Positions 24,799-41,917 of a DNA stretch of 64,000 bases are shown here, piece after piece. This stretch comes from Halobaculum litoreum (GTDB taxonomy: Archaea > Halobacteriota > Halobacteria > Halobacteriales > Haloferacaceae), in contig NZ_CP126156.1 of NCBI RefSeq assembly GCF_030127125.1, positions 620,001 through 684,000 of the forward strand, written 5' to 3'. A program made the translations under genes and the position numbers. The notes below the pieces were generated by a model. The model did no database searches, was not told where the DNA came from, and saw only the letters and a program-made list of their open reading frames with translations. Positions within the stretch are counted from its first letter, which is position 1. Every line of letters begins with the position of its first letter.

Positions 24799-25611
24799 TC
24801 AGTACTCCTCCGGGTCGAGTTCGAGGACGAGCGACCCGCCCTTGAACGCGCGAACGAGCCCGTCGGACTCCGAGAGGACGATGGCGATGGCGTTCGTGTC
24901 GCGGGTGATGGCGCCGCCGGCCATGTGGCGCGCGCCCAACCCCTTCGGGATGTCGACGCCCTCCGCGCCCGGTTCGAGGTAGCGGTACGCCGAGACGATC
25001 TTGCCGGAGTCGCTGATGACGAACGCGCCGTCGAGCCGGGAGAACTCCTTGAGCATCACGTTCACGATGGGGTCGCCGACGTGGACGTGCGACTTCTCGA
25101 AGGGGTTGTAGCTCAGCGGGCGGGACTTGTTCATCACCTTCCCCGCGTCGCCGACGACGAACAGCGCGCCGACGGGCTTGCCCTTCTGCCCCTTCTTCCC
25201 CAACTCGATCGCCACGTCGAACACGTCGCGCACGACGTTGGGGTCCGCGCGGGAGTTGGCGAACAGGTCGAAGATGCCCGAGTGCATCGACTCGGTGACG
25301 GGCGTGCGCACGACGCCGTCGATGGGGTCGCCGAACACGCCGACCGCGCAGGCGATCACGTCGCCCTCGGCGCAGTAGCCGTGGTCCATCGCGCCCTCGA
25401 TCCCGAAGCGGATCCGGTCGCGGACGTTGTCGAACTCCAGCGGGAGTTCGACGTACCGCTCGGCGTCGTGGTCGTTCTCCGGGGCGACGACGACCGCCGG
25501 TTCGTCGTCGATCACCCGGTAGTCGTCGTAGGTCGATCCCGTCGGCGAGAAGAGGAACACCCCGTCGACGTCCGCGACGAGGTCGGCGAGGAGGTCGGCC
25601 GAGGTAGTCAT
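24799..25611 (-). CDS. dacZ: Diadenylate cyclase (c-di-AMP synthase)
   Basis: 270 residues. The DisA_N catalytic signature is present: DGA at 194-196 (LDGAFVISDSG) and RHMAGGA from 228, with downstream TNAIAIVLSES. The preceding half (AMDHGYCAEGDVIACAVGVF, TPVTESMHSGIFDLF) resembles the PK-like N-terminal domain of archaeal DacZ. It condenses two ATP to c-di-AMP, which in Haloferax is essential and osmolarity-linked (established for the family). Located immediately upstream of mscS. ATG 25611 begins the conserved protein. Confidence 0.93.
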   Translation of the reverse strand: MTTSADLLADLVADVDGVFLFSPTGSTYDDYRVIDDEPAVVVAPENDHDAERYVELPLEFDNVRDRIRFGIEGAMDHGYCAEGDVIACAVGVFGDPIDGVVRTPVTESMHSGIFDLFANSRADPNVVRDVFDVAIELGKKGQKGKPVGALFVVGDAGKVMNKSRPLSYNPFEKSHVHVGDPIVNVMLKEFSRLDGAFVISDSGKIVSAYRYLEPGAEGVDIPKGLGARHMAGGAITRDTNAIAIVLSESDGLVRAFKGGSLVLELDPEEY

Positions 25612-36460: not shown

Positions 36461-36510
36461 GCTCGTCGTCGTTGCGCCGCGAGAGTGACGGGCTTGGAGG
36501 GAGTTGAACC
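36461..36510 (+). repeat. Direct repeat copy 2 (within tRNA-Lys 3' end and flank)
   Basis: Second copy of the 50-base direct repeat, covering the 3' third of the intact tRNA-Lys and the sequence beyond it. The two differences from copy 1 lie at the boundary (gagtgac against gaaggac). Confidence 0.85.
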
Positions 36511-36562
36511 CCCGACCGACGGATTAAGAGTCCGTCGCTCTCCCTGACTGAGCTACAAGCCC
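36489..36562 (-). tRNA. tRNA-Lys (anticodon CUU)
   Basis: 74-nt cloverleaf. The acceptor GGGCTTG (36556-36562) pairs with CAAGCCC (36490-36496), discriminator G. Anticodon stem ACGGA-CTCTTAA-TCCGT gives CUU. D-arm GCTCAGTCAGGGAGAGC and T-arm GGGGGTTCAACTCCCTC are complete. No intron; CCA not encoded. A TATA-like tcttttagc at 36590-36597 sits about 30 nt upstream of the 5' end. Confidence 0.96.
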
Positions 36563-36671
36563 TTGCGTTTCCACGAAGCGAGGGTACGCTAAAAGACCTT
36601 CCGTTTCCCGGACGGCGCCGGCGTGAACGAACATCACCGCTTAAGTGCCGTCCGGCCGGATTCCGGGCTAC

Positions 36672-38144
36672 ATGAGTACCGGGGTCACCGTCTCCTCGAT
36701 GTCGACCTACGCCATCCTCGGGTGTGGGAGCGTCGGCCACGCGGTCGCCGACGAGTTGACCGACGAGGAGAAGGACGTGCTGATCCTCGACCGCGACGAG
36801 TCGCGCGTCGAGGCGTTGCGCGACCAGGACCTGAACGCGCAGGTGCAGGACATCGCCGAGCCCGGCGTGGTCGACGCGGTCGCCGACCGCGACGTGATCC
36901 TCATCCTCTCGTCGGACGTCGACGCCAACAAGGCCGCCGTCCGCGCCATCCGCGAGCGCGGCTCCGACCAGTACGTCGTCGTCCGCGCCTCCGACCCCGT
37001 CAGCGAGGACGAACTCGCCGACCTCGGCGCGGACGTGGTGATCAACCCCTCCACCGTCATCGCCGACTCCGCGCTCCGCTCGCTCGAGTCGGGCGAGTTG
37101 GAGTACAAGGCCCGCCAGCTGGCGGACATCCTCCGCGCGACGAACGGGAAGCTCGCGGTGCTGGCACACGACAACCCCGACCCCGACTCCATCGCCGCCG
37201 CCGTCGCGCTGACGGCCATCGCGGCCGAGTACGGCGTCGAGGCCGACATCCTCTACGACGGCGAGATCGGCCACCAAGAGAACCGCGCGTTCGTGAACAC
37301 GCTCGGCATCGAACTGCACGCCCGCGAGGACGCCCAGCCATTGTCGGAGTACGGCGCGCTCGCGCTCGTCGACTACGCCGAGACCGGCGGCGACGACATC
37401 GACGCCGACGTCGACGTGTACATCGACCACGACGAGCCGGAGGCCCTCATCGACGCCGAGTTCACCGACATCCGGAAGAACGTCTCCGCCACGTCGACGA
37501 TCCTCACGAAGTACCTCCAGGAGTTCGACCTCTCTCCCAGCGAGACGGTCGCGACCGCCCTGCTGTACGGGATCCGCGCTGAGACGGTCGACTTCAAGCG
37601 CGACACCACGCCCGCCGACCTCACCGCCGCGGCGTACCTCCACCCGTTCGCCAACCACGACACGCTCGAGGACGTCGAGTCGCCGAGCATGAGCCCGGAG
37701 ACGTTGGACGTGCTCGCGGAGGCGATCCAGAACCGCGAGGTCCACGGCAGCCACCTCATCTCCAACGCCGGGTTCGTTCGCGACCGCGAGGCGCTCGCGC
37801 AGGCGGCCCAACAGCTCCTCAACCTCGAGGGGATCACCACCTCCGCGGTGTTCGGCATCGCAGAGGACACCATCACGCTCGCGGCGCGCTCGAAGGACAT
37901 CCGCATCAACATCGGCAACGTCCTGCGCGACGGCTTCTCGGACGTCGGCGAGGCGGTCGGCCACTCCAAACAGGGCACCGCCGAGATCCCGCTCGGGCTG
38001 TTCACGGGCATCGAGGCGACCGAGTCGAACCGCGACACGCTCCTCCAGCTGTCGGAGGAGGCGGTGCGGAAGAAGCTGTTCGACGCGATGGGCGTCGAGA
38101 GTTCGCCCGGGTCGGGGTCGCCGGAGTCGGCGAACGGGTCGTAA
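36672..38144 (+). CDS. TrkA-N/DHH-DHHA1 domain phosphoesterase
   Basis: 490 residues. The N-terminal TrkA-N Rossmann domain (MSTYAILGCGSVGHAVADEL; residues 10-130) binds NAD(H) or nucleotide. The DHH domain (residues 150-350) has DNPDPDSIAAAVAL, DYAE and the YIDHDEP metal motif (DHD, not classic DHH). The DHHA1 domain follows (HGSHLISNAGFVRDREALAQ and the closing GHSKQGTAEIPLG). This combination resembles archaeal relatives of GdpP/NrnA phosphodiesterases and fits a c-di-AMP or nanoRNA phosphodiesterase. ATG 36672 has a TATA-like gcttaag at 36639-36645. Confidence 0.85.
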   Translation: MSTGVTVSSMSTYAILGCGSVGHAVADELTDEEKDVLILDRDESRVEALRDQDLNAQVQDIAEPGVVDAVADRDVILILSSDVDANKAAVRAIRERGSDQYVVVRASDPVSEDELADLGADVVINPSTVIADSALRSLESGELEYKARQLADILRATNGKLAVLAHDNPDPDSIAAAVALTAIAAEYGVEADILYDGEIGHQENRAFVNTLGIELHAREDAQPLSEYGALALVDYAETGGDDIDADVDVYIDHDEPEALIDAEFTDIRKNVSATSTILTKYLQEFDLSPSETVATALLYGIRAETVDFKRDTTPADLTAAAYLHPFANHDTLEDVESPSMSPETLDVLAEAIQNREVHGSHLISNAGFVRDREALAQAAQQLLNLEGITTSAVFGIAEDTITLAARSKDIRINIGNVLRDGFSDVGEAVGHSKQGTAEIPLGLFTGIEATESNRDTLLQLSEEAVRKKLFDAMGVESSPGSGSPESANGS

Positions 38145-38635: not shown

Positions 38636-38929
38636 TCAGACCTGCTGTTCCTCGGCGGTTTCGTCCTTGAGCCGCTCGATGGTGTCGTTGATCAGGATGA
38701 CGTCGCCGACCGCGCGGACCCAGCGGTACGGGATCATGACGCCCTTACCGGGCTCGATCCGGCTCGCGAACAGTTCGTCGCTCAGTTGCGACAGCGCGAG
38801 CCCGGTGACGGTCTGCCCGTCCAGGTCGAGGCGCACGTCCTCGACCTCCCCCACGAAGACGCCGTTGTTGGAGTAGACCTCCCGCCCGACGAGGGTGGTG
38901 ATCTCCTGCGGCGCCGCGTCTGCGTGCAT
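38636..38929 (-). CDS. PRC-barrel domain protein
   Basis: 97 residues with a complete PRC-barrel (EITTLVGREVYSNNGVFVGEVEDVRLDLDGQTVTGL, then GKGVMIPYRWVRAVGDVILI). In archaea such single-domain proteins occur near cell-division or RNA-processing genes; a role with CdpB-type division proteins is possible but not shown. ATG 38929 is preceded by a clear TATA box at 38951-38963. Confidence 0.88.
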   Translation of the reverse strand: MHADAAPQEITTLVGREVYSNNGVFVGEVEDVRLDLDGQTVTGLALSQLSDELFASRIEPGKGVMIPYRWVRAVGDVILINDTIERLKDETAEEQQV

Positions 38930-38950
38930 ACGCCGTTCTGCGGTACGGCG

Positions 38951-38963
38951 GGTCTTAAAATCG
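38951..38963 (-). promoter_or_regulatory. TATA-like box of the PRC-barrel gene
   Basis: Minus-strand cgattttaagacc, centred 28 nt before ATG 38929: a strong leaderless haloarchaeal promoter match. Confidence 0.65.
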
Positions 38964-39062
38964 TTCCTCGCACACCGACGCGTGTCCGACGCCCGGCACA
39001 CGGGGCGGCGGCGCGGTCGGCCCGGGGCGGCCGCGTGGTCGACGTAGCCGTGGGACCGCCGC

Positions 39063-41303
39063 CTACTCGGGGGCGATGGCCTCGACGGGGTGTTCGGTTC
39101 GGCCCCCGAGGAGCGCGTCCAACTGCTCACAGCAGGAGGTGCCCGACGCGAGCACGCGCTCGGCGTCGCCGAACTGGTCGGCCAGCGGCTCGCCGACGTC
39201 CATCGACAGCGCGTAGTACTCCGACTTGTAGCCGAAGCTGCCCGCCATCCCGCAACACTCGGTGTCGGAGACGGTCACGCCGTAGCCGAGGCGCTCCAGC
39301 ACCGCGACGGTGTGGTCCGCGAGCCCGAGCGTGCGCTGCTGGCAGTGGGCGTGGTAGGCGACGGGCGCGCCGTCGCCCGCGGTCAGCCCCTCGGCGGCGG
39401 CGCCGTTCTCCAGCAGCCCGAACACGTACTCCAGCACCTCGTAGCTGTTCGCGGCGAGGCGCTCGGCACCGTCCCCGCCGAGGAGCGTTCCGTACTCGCG
39501 GTCGAACGCCGCGAGGTCGCTCGGCTCGACGACGACCACGTCCCGGCCCGCGTCGACCTCGGGGAGCAGCGCGTCGCGGCAGCGTTCGGCCTTCCGGCGC
39601 GCGGTCTCGACCATCCCCTGCGACAGCGGCGCGCGACCGCTCCCGACCGCCGCCGACTCCGGGACCGTCACCCGCACGCCGAGCGCCTCCAGCGTGCGGA
39701 CCGCCGCCTTCCCGCGGTCGACGGCGACGTGGTTGGTGTAGATGTCGGGGTACAGCACCGCCTCGCGGCGGGCCATCGACTCGCTCACCCGCGGGCCGCC
39801 GCGGGCCGCGAACCAGTCCACGAGCGTCTCGCGCCGGAACGACGGGAGGTCGCGCTCCCGCGTGACGCCGAGCCAGCGGTCCATCGCGGCGCGCACCGGC
39901 CCGAGGTTCGCCCCCCAGTTCGACACCGGCGCGGTCGCGCTCCCCAGCCGCGCCAGCGTCTCGAAGTTGCCGAACAGTCGCTTGGCCGGGTCCAGTCCGC
40001 CGGGTTCGTCGTCCGGCGTCAGCCCCTCGACGAGCGAGTCGAACGTGCCGGGGTCGGCGCCGCGGTTCACGCGGTCGCGGACGACGGTGTTGATCCACGG
40101 GATGTCGATCTCGACGGGACACGCGGGGACGCACCGCGTGCAGCCCGTACAGAGGTCGTTGAACTCGGCGGCGGTGTCGAGCCCCTCGACGCCGGCCTCC
40201 CAGCCGGTGGCGATGCCGCCGGAGTACGTCTCCCCGCCGAAGGCGTGGCCGCCGACCGACTGGAAGTTGCCACAGGAGTTCGAGCAGGCGCCACAGCGGA
40301 TGCAGTACAGCGTCTCGCGGAGGTCGTCGTCCGCGCGCATGTCGAGCCTGCCGTTGTCGACGAGCACGAGGTGGAACTCCCGGTCGGGGTGCGGGTCGGT
40401 CGCGCCGTCGCCCGTCCGGGCCCCCGGCGCGGCCATCGGCTCGTCGGGGGCGGCGAAGTCGACCGGCGGCGACGGCGTCGGCGGCGTGAGCAACGACACG
40501 TACGAGGTGATGTCCTGTCCGGTGCCGGAGCGGCCGATCAGCTCGACGAACGGGGCCAGATCTTCGACGGAGGGGACCACCTTCTCGACGCCCGCGACCG
40601 CGACGTGCGTGTCGGGGACGACCGCGGTCTTGCGGGCGTTCCCCTCGCTGGTGACGAGCGCGAGCGACCCCGAGTCGGCGGTGAGGAAGTTCGCCCCCGT
40701 CACGCCCACGTCGGCCTCGCGGATCTCCGCGAGGAGCTTCTCGCGGGCGAACCGCGTCAGCTCCTCGGCGGTCTCCGGGCGGTCGTCGGCGGGGAGGTCG
40801 AACGTCTCCGCGAACAGGTCGGCGATCCCCTCCCGGGACTTGTGGATCGCGGGCCCGACGATGTGGCTCGGCGCCTCGTCGGCCAACTGGAGCACCCACT
40901 CCCCGAGGTCGGTCTCGGTGACGCGCGCGCCGTCGGCCTCGAGCGCCGCGTTCAGCTCCACCTCCTCGGTGGTCATCGACTTGCTCTTGACGACGTTCGC
41001 GCCGTCGACCACCTCGCGTACGTAGGCGGTCGCGTCGTCGTCGTCGGCGGCGACGTACAGGTGGCCGCCGCGCGCCTCCACCGCCTCGCGGAGGTCGTCG
41101 ATCAGCTCGGGCAGGCGCTCGATCGCGTCCTCCTTGATCGCCCGCGCCTCCCCCTTCAACGCCTCGTACTCGTCGAGTGTCGCCGTCGAGTCGATGCGCC
41201 CGCGGTTGAAGCCGCGCGTGTTCTCGGCGACGGCGTCGCCCTCCGTCTCCAGCAGGTGCCGGATGCGGCGAGCCCGCTCGGCCTTGGAGTCGGGCTTACT
41301 CAT
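39063..41303 (-). CDS. LutB-LutA type fused iron-sulfur lactate-oxidation protein
   Basis: 746 residues. Residues 60-280 are a LUD domain (DGANVVKSKSMTTEEVELNAALEADG, VGVTGANFLTADSGSLALVTSEGN). Two ferredoxin-like Cys clusters follow (CIRCGACSNSCGNF about 331, CTGCTRCVPACP about 386), then CCG heterodisulfide-reductase-like repeats (HAHCQQRTLG, TECCGMAGSFGYKSEYYALS about 680). In bacteria LutA (CCG) and LutB (LUD plus 4Fe-4S) are separate proteins of the L-lactate oxidase; here they are fused. LutC-like partner overlaps upstream by 8 bases. Confidence 0.88.
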   Translation of the reverse strand: MSKPDSKAERARRIRHLLETEGDAVAENTRGFNRGRIDSTATLDEYEALKGEARAIKEDAIERLPELIDDLREAVEARGGHLYVAADDDDATAYVREVVDGANVVKSKSMTTEEVELNAALEADGARVTETDLGEWVLQLADEAPSHIVGPAIHKSREGIADLFAETFDLPADDRPETAEELTRFAREKLLAEIREADVGVTGANFLTADSGSLALVTSEGNARKTAVVPDTHVAVAGVEKVVPSVEDLAPFVELIGRSGTGQDITSYVSLLTPPTPSPPVDFAAPDEPMAAPGARTGDGATDPHPDREFHLVLVDNGRLDMRADDDLRETLYCIRCGACSNSCGNFQSVGGHAFGGETYSGGIATGWEAGVEGLDTAAEFNDLCTGCTRCVPACPVEIDIPWINTVVRDRVNRGADPGTFDSLVEGLTPDDEPGGLDPAKRLFGNFETLARLGSATAPVSNWGANLGPVRAAMDRWLGVTRERDLPSFRRETLVDWFAARGGPRVSESMARREAVLYPDIYTNHVAVDRGKAAVRTLEALGVRVTVPESAAVGSGRAPLSQGMVETARRKAERCRDALLPEVDAGRDVVVVEPSDLAAFDREYGTLLGGDGAERLAANSYEVLEYVFGLLENGAAAEGLTAGDGAPVAYHAHCQQRTLGLADHTVAVLERLGYGVTVSDTECCGMAGSFGYKSEYYALSMDVGEPLADQFGDAERVLASGTSCCEQLDALLGGRTEHPVEAIAPE

Positions 41304-41841
41304 CTCGCCCCTCCCGTGTGCCGTCGGCGCCGGGGTCGCCGTCGGCCGCCTCCACGAGCACCACGTCGACCTCGCGCGGGCCGTGCGCGCCGATGACGAG
41401 GTCGCCCATGTCGGCGGTCGCGGAGGGGCCGGTCGCCAACACGGCGCTGGCGCCGTCGCGCAGTCGGTCCCCGAGGGCGTCGATCGCCTCGCGCATCCCC
41501 GGCACGAGGTCGGCGGCGCGCACGACGACGACGTGGCGCTCCGGGAACAGCGACACCTGCTCGCTGCCGGCGGCGTCGGCCGGCAGGACGACGGTCCCGT
41601 AGTCGGCGATGCCGAGGCTCGCGGCGGTGACGCCGGTGGCGGCGGCGTCGAGGTCGGCCGGCGTCGGATCGGTGGCGACCGACGGCGGCAGGGCGAGGCC
41701 GTCGGGCAACGCGACGCCGACGGCCGGCGGATCCACCAGGGTCGCGACCGCGTCGGTGACGCCGTCGGGAGCGACCCGGTGGACGGTGGCGTGGTGTCGC
41801 TCGACGTTCTCGACGAACGCCGACCGCGTGTCCGTGGTCAT
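41296..41841 (-). CDS. LUD domain protein, LutC-like
   Basis: 181 residues. Late LUD motifs visible are ASLGIADYGTVVLPADAAGSEQVSLFPERHVVVVRAADLV and ATGPSATADMGDLVIGAHGPREVDVVLV, typical of LutC (YkgG). First gene of the operon, overlapping the start of the fused lutB-A by 8 bases. Together they would oxidise lactate, electrons passing through the Fe-S clusters. ATG 41841. Confidence 0.88.
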   Translation of the reverse strand: MTTDTRSAFVENVERHHATVHRVAPDGVTDAVATLVDPPAVGVALPDGLALPPSVATDPTPADLDAAATGVTAASLGIADYGTVVLPADAAGSEQVSLFPERHVVVVRAADLVPGMREAIDALGDRLRDGASAVLATGPSATADMGDLVIGAHGPREVDVVLVEAADGDPGADGTREGRDE

Positions 41842-41917
41842 GTCGGGACCTTGCGAAGCCGGGCGCTTGTGTGTTGCGTTGACACGGGCCGCGAAGCGCG
41901 GAAGCACTCCCCCGCGG

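What the first reader, a model, noticed from the sequence alone, without database searches (positions are those of the whole stretch)
36672..38144. TrkA-N plus DHH-DHHA1 phosphoesterase is a candidate c-di-AMP phosphodiesterase
The N-terminal TrkA-N domain resembles K+-channel regulatory domains, which in bacteria bind c-di-AMP (RCK_C) or sit near such partners, and DHH-DHHA1 is the fold of GdpP/DhhP. With dacZ in the same window, this protein may degrade c-di-AMP and sense NAD(H). The metal motif reads DHD in place of DHH.
Basis: inference. Interest (0 to 1): 0.55.

Follow-up and report, generated by a model that had tools for sequence, protein, structure and literature searches.

The report
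Worn c-di-AMP phosphodiesterase relative in haloarchaea
This protein of a salt-loving archaeon looks like an enzyme that destroys the signal molecule c-di-AMP, but comparison with its relatives suggests that its cutting site is worn down while its sensing half is kept, and that a sister protein with the opposite wear may do the cutting.

Summary
Confirmed: window 36672-38144 (+) encodes 490 aa, TrkA-N + DHH + weak DHHA1, with DHD for DHH; dacZ lies 11 kb away. By its LudBC neighbours it is the HVO_1690 gene, already on a published list of predicted c-di-AMP phosphodiesterases. Strong relatives are in 266 of 294 genomes of the phylum, and their presence tracks diadenylate cyclase (both absent in 20, mostly two clades). 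New here, to my knowledge: haloarchaea carry two such proteins with reciprocal decay. This one (type B) keeps the TrkA-N nucleotide motif in 69 of 69 sequences and the complete catalytic signature in 0 of 69 (second His lost in 115 of 144, at least one of five metal ligands in 80 of 144; this copy keeps those five). A paralog in the same genome (type A) keeps catalysis in 35 of 35 but the TrkA-N motif in 6 of 35. Orthologs outside haloarchaea keep both (17 of 17). Best reading: type B is a catalytically impaired regulator; type A is the better phosphodiesterase candidate. No activity was measured, and no contact between A and B is shown.

The parts
36672..38144 (+). type B TrkA-N-DHH-DHHA1 gene (490 aa), counterpart of HVO_1690 by neighbourhood
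36708..37049 (+). TrkA-N (RCK_N) domain, residues 13-126; GxGxxG (17-22) and acidic residue D40 intact
   Evidence: fold matches KtrA rings with ATP/ADP and an RCK domain with NADH
37152..37574 (+). DHH domain
37167..37187 (+). motif I HDNPDPD (H166, D170, D172), kept in this protein, lost in many orthologs
37425..37433 (+). motif III DHD (252-254): second His replaced by Asp
37581..37583 (+). motif IV E304 in place of Asp
37773..38048 (+). DHHA1 domain (weak), residues 368-459
   Evidence: under cut-off
37953..37964 (+). AVGH (428-431) in place of the substrate-site GGGH
24799..25611 (-). dacZ, diadenylate cyclase (270 aa, DACZ_N + DAC)
36489..36562 (-). tRNA-Lys (ctt), divergent upstream neighbour
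38636..39130 (-). PRC-barrel protein (start codon uncertain)
39063..41303 (-). LudB-like LUD/Fe-S protein, the synteny anchor to HVO_1692
41296..41907 (-). LudC-like LUD protein

Best explanation
The protein is a catalytically impaired (pseudo)phosphodiesterase that works as a regulator. Shown by sequence: it is the ortholog of a gene of other members of the phylum that joins an intact RCK_N nucleotide-binding motif to an intact GdpP-like DHH-DHHA1 site; in haloarchaea this ortholog kept the RCK_N motif and lost catalytic residues, while a haloarchaeal paralog (type A) kept the catalytic residues and mostly lost the RCK_N motif. Inferred: the ancestral protein was a c-di-AMP phosphodiesterase gated by a cytosolic nucleotide such as NAD(H) or ATP/ADP; in haloarchaea the two jobs are split, type B sensing the nucleotide (and perhaps still holding c-di-AMP or pApA in its cleft) and controlling type A, possibly as a mixed oligomer, and type A (or the TrkA-less type C) hydrolysing c-di-AMP.
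For: Reciprocal decay: TrkA GxGxxG + acidic residue in 69/69 B, 6/35 A, 17/17 outside haloarchaea; full catalytic signature in 0/69 B, 35/35 A, 17/17 outside. In 144 B rows H166 is kept in 91, D170 in 115, the second His in 29, the first G of GGH in 10; at least 12, 5, 16 and 4 changes on the tree; 21/21 at each in the outgroup. B is the most conserved group overall (mean pairwise identity 0.73 against 0.50-0.54), yet position 254 is at its 6th percentile of conservation. B is one clade (100/99) beside the non-haloarchaeal orthologs (99/97), active-site columns left out. Of 59 genomes of the order, 53 have B; 51 of these also have an A and/or C gene (typed; counted); the two without are 64-66% complete. 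Sites were read in 35 of the A genes and 18 C genes, all intact. Alanine at the second His: 100% loss in PyapApase (PMC8268124, passages), almost complete inactivation in DrRecJ-like (PMC11229311, passages). Kept in B: R406, G430, H431, T276, R310. Link to c-di-AMP: GdpP is the best match of the canonical profile, 69 bits; gene (E<=1e-40) and DAC are both absent in 20 of 294 genomes, 3 expected: family f24 10 of 10, genus g42 8 of 10 (the other 2 have both), and G045 and G133, whereas RCK_C is in 293 of 294.
Against: This very protein keeps five metal ligands, and E304 also occurs in otherwise intact relatives (3 of 17 M, 17 of 18 C), so activity is possible. The Haloferax denitrificans copy is milder still: DHF and AET, but AGGH kept and DHHA1 just over its cut-off. 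7 of 144 B rows keep all ligands and the second His, among them all four f40 rows read. In PyapApase the first His could be changed with almost no effect (PMC8268124), so residue rules are not absolute. DHHA1 is recognised at E<=0.001 in 41 of 43 members of A3, four of which are non-haloarchaeal. A phosphate-site Ser (404, SxR) is lost in 44 of 53 B, so ligand binding in the cleft is uncertain. Enrichment of lost positions at the active site is not significant on its own (4 of 10 lost, Fisher p 0.40). DAC without the gene: 8 of 294, 2 of 233 good genomes (G051, G006), and family f34 (DAC 3 of 4, A/B/C 0 of 4; 58-78% complete). Gene without DAC: 11 of 294, 5 of 233. Three of the ten f24 genomes have weak P0001 matches (E about 1e-6, counted as absent). 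Nothing shows that A and B touch; they are far apart in the window genome (166774 and 656672).
Confidence: 0.56

Rival explanations
1. One reading: the protein is an active c-di-AMP (or pApA) phosphodiesterase with a non-canonical site (DHD, Glu for Asp), gated by NAD(H) through TrkA-N.
For: Five metal ligands and a Glu at the sixth place are kept here; fold and profile nearest GdpP; gene presence tracks DAC; HVO_1690 is a listed candidate (PMC8305020 passages); some orthologs keep DHH.
Against: Second His and GGGH lost here; many orthologs lose metal ligands while paralogs stay intact; mutants of the second His are inactive or nearly so in two relatives (PMC8268124, PMC11229311, passages).
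Confidence: 0.2
2. The family is not about c-di-AMP: the canonical members are nanoRNases, pAp phosphatases or short-oligo exonucleases, and type B is a worn relative with a role in RNA or DNA turnover.
For: DHH-DHHA1 proteins such as NrnA take pAp, nanoRNA and c-di-AMP (PMC11229311, PMC8268124, passages); the archaeal PyapApase takes pAp but neither c-di-AMP nor pApA (PMC8268124); HVO_0990 and HVO_1690 are grouped under DNA recombination/repair in a proteome paper (PMC10294847, one passage).
Against: GdpP scores above TmPDE, Rv2837c, DhhP and NrnA; co-loss with DAC in two clades.
Confidence: 0.15
3. Type B is a scaffold without ligand sensing, as Cdc45 and RecJdbh are degenerate DHH proteins that serve a complex structurally; the TrkA-N domain only assembles rings or dimers.
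For: Degenerate DHH proteins with structural roles are known (PMC7776575, passages). RCK_N domains form oligomers (recalled; entry titles name octameric rings).
Against: The nucleotide motif GxGxxG + D40 is kept in 69 of 69 B, more than an interface should need, and is mostly lost in A.
Confidence: 0.09

Closest known systems
GdpP (c-di-AMP phosphodiesterase), DHH-DHHA1 module (5xsi, 5xt3; 9n0l 'Cyclic-di-AMP phosphodiesterase')
   Same: DHH-DHHA1 fold and order; best match of the canonical archaeal profile and top Foldseek match of the model
   Different: TrkA-N in place of membrane/PAS/GGDEF parts (recalled); second DHH His, motif IV Asp and GGGH changed here
HVO_1690, listed as a predicted c-di-AMP phosphodiesterase of Haloferax volcanii (PMC8305020, passages; its source He et al. 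2020 not held)
   Same: the Haloferax gene at this place beside ludBC; the H. denitrificans copy has LUD-domain neighbours, one of 733 aa like HVO_1692
   Different: the passages that I read say nothing of changed catalytic residues or of a paralog with the opposite decay; the H. volcanii sequence itself was not read here
KtrA/TrkA RCK_N regulators of K+ transport
   Same: Rossmann nucleotide-binding domain with GxGxxG and acidic residue; best sequence match 3llv, from an Archaeoglobus 'exopolyphosphatase-related protein'
   Different: no RCK_C found; fused to DHH-DHHA1
Cdc45 / RecJdbh and other degenerate DHH proteins (PMC7776575, passages)
   Same: DHH scaffold that lost catalysis and kept a role
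   Different: DHHA1 and TrkA-N present, tied to c-di-AMP by phylogenetic profile and not to the replisome

Membership tests
GdpP/DhhP-type DHH-DHHA1 phosphodiesterase | DHH followed by DHHA1 | tested here: met
   (DHHA1 by Pfam under its cut-off; fold match spans it)
GdpP/DhhP-type DHH-DHHA1 phosphodiesterase | six ligands for two metals (H, D, D, D, H, D) | tested here: inconclusive
   five kept here, sixth is Glu; 64 of 144 ortholog rows keep the five
GdpP/DhhP-type DHH-DHHA1 phosphodiesterase | second His of the DHH motif | tested here: not met
   Asp254 here; His in 29 of 144 ortholog rows
GdpP/DhhP-type DHH-DHHA1 phosphodiesterase | GGGH-type motif of DHHA1 | tested here: not met
   AVGH here; first of the two conserved Gly kept in 10 of 144 ortholog rows
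GdpP/DhhP-type DHH-DHHA1 phosphodiesterase | hydrolysis of c-di-AMP to pApA or AMP | not testable with these tools
   needs an assay
RCK/TrkA-N domain proteins | Rossmann fold with GxGxxG and acidic residue after beta-2 | tested here: met
c-di-AMP-binding RCK_C proteins | RCK_C (TrkA_C, PF02080) domain | tested here: not met
   no PF02080 hit at E<=1
pseudoenzyme | catalytic residues variable while the rest is conserved | tested here: met
   at family level; this copy has lost the second His and GG but keeps five ligands
pseudoenzyme | absence of catalytic activity | not testable with these tools
   needs an assay

The most novel reading that the evidence does not exclude
Haloarchaea split an ancestral one-protein, nucleotide-gated c-di-AMP phosphodiesterase into two: an enzyme that lost its sensor (type A) and a sensor that lost its enzyme (type B, this gene), which work together in trans to set c-di-AMP, and so K+/osmotic balance, in response to the cell's NAD(H) or ATP state.
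Probability: 0.37. Interest if true: 0.75.

Novelty: new variant of a known kind. Interest (0 to 1): 0.57.

Why it matters
The enzymes that remove c-di-AMP and pApA in H. volcanii were stated to be unknown in 2021 (PMC8646023, passages), although dacZ is essential and its overexpression kills (PMC6741144, passages with the abstract). If this reading holds, a listed candidate (HVO_1690) is probably not the enzyme, the paralog is the one to assay first, and the pair is a natural case of a sensor-enzyme taken apart, with a prediction about which half reads the nucleotide. It is also a caution: a DHH call by profile does not show that the site is intact.

Tried and rejected
Same-window closeness to dacZ as evidence of function: rejected, not conserved (2 of 29 same-contig pairs within 20 kb). 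RCK_C as a tracker of c-di-AMP in this phylum: uninformative, 293 of 294 genomes have it. Gene neighbours of non-haloarchaeal orthologs: ORFs printed for nine genomes, the output cut in the middle; in the part shown I saw no shared K+ transporter; an NAD(P)HX-repair-like ORF is a divergent neighbour in two and M50-CBS plus TraB-like ORFs lie nearby in two others (named by eye, no family search); no conclusion. Viral contigs: 147 pattern matches, none a relative (close relatives only). NCBIfam: none of the 25 rows shown, of 55, reached its cut-off. Significance of loss at active-site positions by Fisher: p 0.40. E304 as a sign of decay: dropped, since intact relatives carry it too. The root of the paralog tree rests on one long branch (L006), so whether type A arose inside haloarchaea or is older is open. 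Rows set aside before counts: L223 (fragment); type D is one sequence; 13 of the 48 type A genes were not read for their sites. G301:C21 was not typed. The 144 B rows mix unnamed and named genomes and may count some species twice. Which of HVO_0756 and HVO_0990 is type A was not determined. The Fisher values treat genomes as independent, which they are not. On checking I added; seeing that the Haloferax copy is milder (AGGH kept), I lowered the main odds from 0.58 to 0.56 and raised the active-enzyme rival from 0.18 to 0.20 (novel case 0.38 to 0.37).

Full report
What is there. The ORF 36672-38144 (+) encodes 490 aa. Pfam gives TrkA_N (13-126, 72.5 bits), DHH (161-301, 41.1 bits) and a DHHA1 match of 20.4 bits, under the 25.9-bit cut-off. 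Relatives with canonical sites score 54.1 (L003), 46.2 (L002), 46.5 (L053) and 32.9 (L006) on DHHA1; the Haloferax denitrificans ortholog scores 26.4. The consensus of alignment A3 begins MSxGxTxSSMSTYAILG, which fits the start at 36672. dacZ lies at 24799-25611 on the other strand. The most similar named locus found is Halobaculum gomorrense, 93% over residues 1-475 (records very near the window's genome may be left out there). dN/dS against L148, L009 and L219 is 0.11, 0.22 and 0.18.

Which gene it is. Downstream lie a PRC-barrel gene and two LUD-domain genes, LudB- and LudC-like. In H. denitrificans (L152) the ortholog is followed on the other strand by a 733-aa LUD/Fe-S protein and a 167-aa LUD protein. 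In H. volcanii ludB (733 aa) and ludC are HVO_1692 and HVO_1693 (PMC8305020, passages). By neighbourhood this is therefore the HVO_1690 gene; the H. volcanii sequence itself was not read. That paper lists HVO_0756, HVO_0990 and HVO_1690 as predictions for c-di-AMP degradation after He et al. 2020 (not held) and says that the degrading enzyme had not been identified in Haloferax. PMC8646023 (passages) says the same in 2021. My ten searches of the held library (two of the lists were capped, 30 of 51 and 12 of 72) listed no paper that I recognised as a test of these genes or as a report of the reciprocal decay. The library lacks most subscription papers, and no supplement could be read.

The family. 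A strong relative (best E<=1e-40; a few are partial) is in 266 of 294 genomes of the phylum; 271 have any match at 1e-5. DAC is in 263 of 294. Handles missing from both capped tables were found by complement and tallied: both 255, gene only 11, DAC only 8, neither 20; among the 233 genomes at least 90% complete and at most 5% contaminated, 211, 5, 2 and 15 (Fisher). The genomes are not independent: the joint absences are family f24 (10 of 10, three of them with weak matches of E about 1e-6), genus g42 (8 of 10, the other two having both) and G045 and G133. So this is about two co-loss events, suggestive and no more. As a control, RCK_C is in 293 of 294, so the co-loss is not a general loss of TrkA-type domains. 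Counter-examples: f34 has DAC in 3 of 4 genomes and none of A, B or C in 4 of 4 (58-78% complete); G051 and G006 have DAC without a strong match.

Paralogs. The own genome has six DHH matches. L003 (type A, 486 aa) has TrkA_N and a canonical site; L002 (type C, 336 aa) and L006 (396 aa, hydrophobic N-terminal stretch by eye) have no TrkA_N hit and canonical ligands; L005 and L007 look RecJ-like by eye. In a tree of the DHH-DHHA1 part without the active-site columns, type B is one clade (100/99) and groups with the non-haloarchaeal orthologs (99/97); A (99/98) and C (100/99) are separate clades.

Decay of the catalytic site in B. In 52 unnamed B rows H166 is H37 Q12 K2 Y1, D170 is D40 E8 G4, H253 is H49 R2 N1, and the second His is His in 7. 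Among 76 named rows plus this protein, motif I reads HDD in 34, QDD in 23, HED in 11 and other in 9. Sixteen rows from further families include worse cases (YED with DHN; GDD with D234 lost; PDD with D234 and H431 lost) and five with all ligands and DHH. Over 144 B rows: H166 91, D170 115, D172 144, D234 140, D252 144, H253 141, second His 29, Asp304 0, first Gly of GGH 10, H431 143; minimum changes on the tree 12, 5, 0, 4, 0, 2, 16, 2, 4 and 1 in that order; the 21 outgroup rows are canonical at all but Asp304 (18). Seven of 144 keep all ligands (D or E at 304) and the second His, none of these also the Gly; 64 keep the five metal ligands H166, D170, D172, D234 and H253, among them this protein. 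H166 and D170 erode most, D172, D234 and H253 least; which metal each binds was not modelled here. Canonical groups are invariant at H166, D170, D172, D234, D252, H253, second His and GGH: A 32 of 32, M 17 of 17, C 18 of 18. The H. denitrificans copy is among the milder ones: HDD, DHF, AET, AGGH.

The reciprocal pattern. G17, G19, G22 and an acidic residue at 40 (TrkA-N nucleotide motif) are all present in 69 of 69 B, 6 of 35 A and 17 of 17 M; the full catalytic signature (D or E at 304 allowed) is in 0 of 69 B, 35 of 35 A and 17 of 17 M. Pfam still recognises TrkA_N in 22 of 23 type A proteins scanned, so the domain is there and its motif is worn. Mean conservation of the TrkA-N part is 0.78 in B and 0.55 in A and in M. 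B rows are 73% identical on average, A 54%, M 50%, C 52%, yet position 254 is among the most variable places in B (6th percentile). In 59 genomes of the order 53 have B and 48 have A; 51 of the 53 also have A and/or C; the two without are 64% and 66% complete (types read off by score, identity and range; counts).

What the lost residues do. In DrRecJ-like, H34, D38, D40, D95, H121 and D171 bind two metals and H122 is the second His; alanine at these residues almost abolished activity (PMC11229311, passages). In PyapApase H79A, the second His, lost all activity and D77A over 80%, while H78A had almost no effect (PMC8268124, passages). In CdnP, Ser292 and Arg294 contact a phosphate of a bound analog (PMC13077336, passages); by motif (SxR, matched by eye) the Arg is kept in B (R406, 52 of 53) and the Ser is mostly Ala (43 of 53).

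Fold. AlphaFold2 with 43 window or named-locus sequences: mean pLDDT 81, pTM 0.60. Foldseek: GdpP 5xt3 E 7e-17, then 5xsp, 8ioo, TmPDE, DhhP; the two domains are set differently (rmsd about 14-18 A over both). VIA-align: GdpP Z 22.5 over 303 residues at rmsd 13.9; pyrophosphatase 1wpn Z 22.3 over 175 residues at 2.5 A; TrkA-N on KtrA Z 16.6 over 118 residues at 1.5 A. Canonical-profile scores: GdpP 69 and 63, TmPDE 51, a mycobacterial NrnA homolog 46, Rv2837c 42, DhhP 38, DrRecJ-like 36, S. aureus NrnA 33 bits; pyrophosphatases up to 65 on the DHH domain only.

Reading. The sequence facts are the ortholog's loss of catalytic residues under purifying selection, the intact nucleotide motif, and the mirror image in the paralog. 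That the ancestral activity is on c-di-AMP is inferred from the GdpP nearness and the co-loss with DAC. That B acts on A is inferred from the mirror pattern and co-occurrence; no contact is shown. I give 0.56 to 'impaired regulator', 0.20 to 'active phosphodiesterase', 0.15 to 'other substrate family', 0.09 to 'pure scaffold'.

Noticed in passing
L003 1048-2505 (G000:C1:166774-168231): Type A paralog in the same genome: canonical DHH-DHHA1 site with a worn TrkA-N motif in most of its orthologs; the better c-di-AMP phosphodiesterase candidate.
   Followed up: yes
L006 913-2103: DHH-DHHA1 protein of 396 aa with a hydrophobic N-terminal stretch (by eye) and canonical site; no TrkA-N hit.
   Followed up: partly
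L002 976-1986: Type C: TrkA-less DHH-DHHA1, canonical ligands in 18 of 18 sequences, Glu at motif IV in 17; in 18 of 59 genomes of the order.
   Followed up: partly
handles of family f24 and genus g42: All ten sampled genomes of one family and eight of ten of one genus lack both a DAC match and a strong TrkA-N-DHH-DHHA1 match: natural members without c-di-AMP, if DAC is the only cyclase.
   Followed up: partly
G094:C1:1854238, G053:C1:2220829, G298:C1:1377982 and others: Partial DAC-like matches covering only model positions about 49-118 in several haloarchaea; in G298 this is the only DAC match.
   Followed up: no
G294, G303, G312 (family f34): Small, incomplete haloarchaeal genomes with DAC but no A, B or C match, which must remove c-di-AMP otherwise if they make it.
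   Followed up: no
window 36640-36672: A CTTAAG 32 bases before the ATG could be part of a promoter of a nearly leaderless transcript (by eye only).
   Followed up: no
L234 and L238 (around two non-haloarchaeal orthologs): An M50-peptidase-CBS-like ORF and a TraB-like ORF lie nearby in both genomes (named by eye).
   Followed up: no
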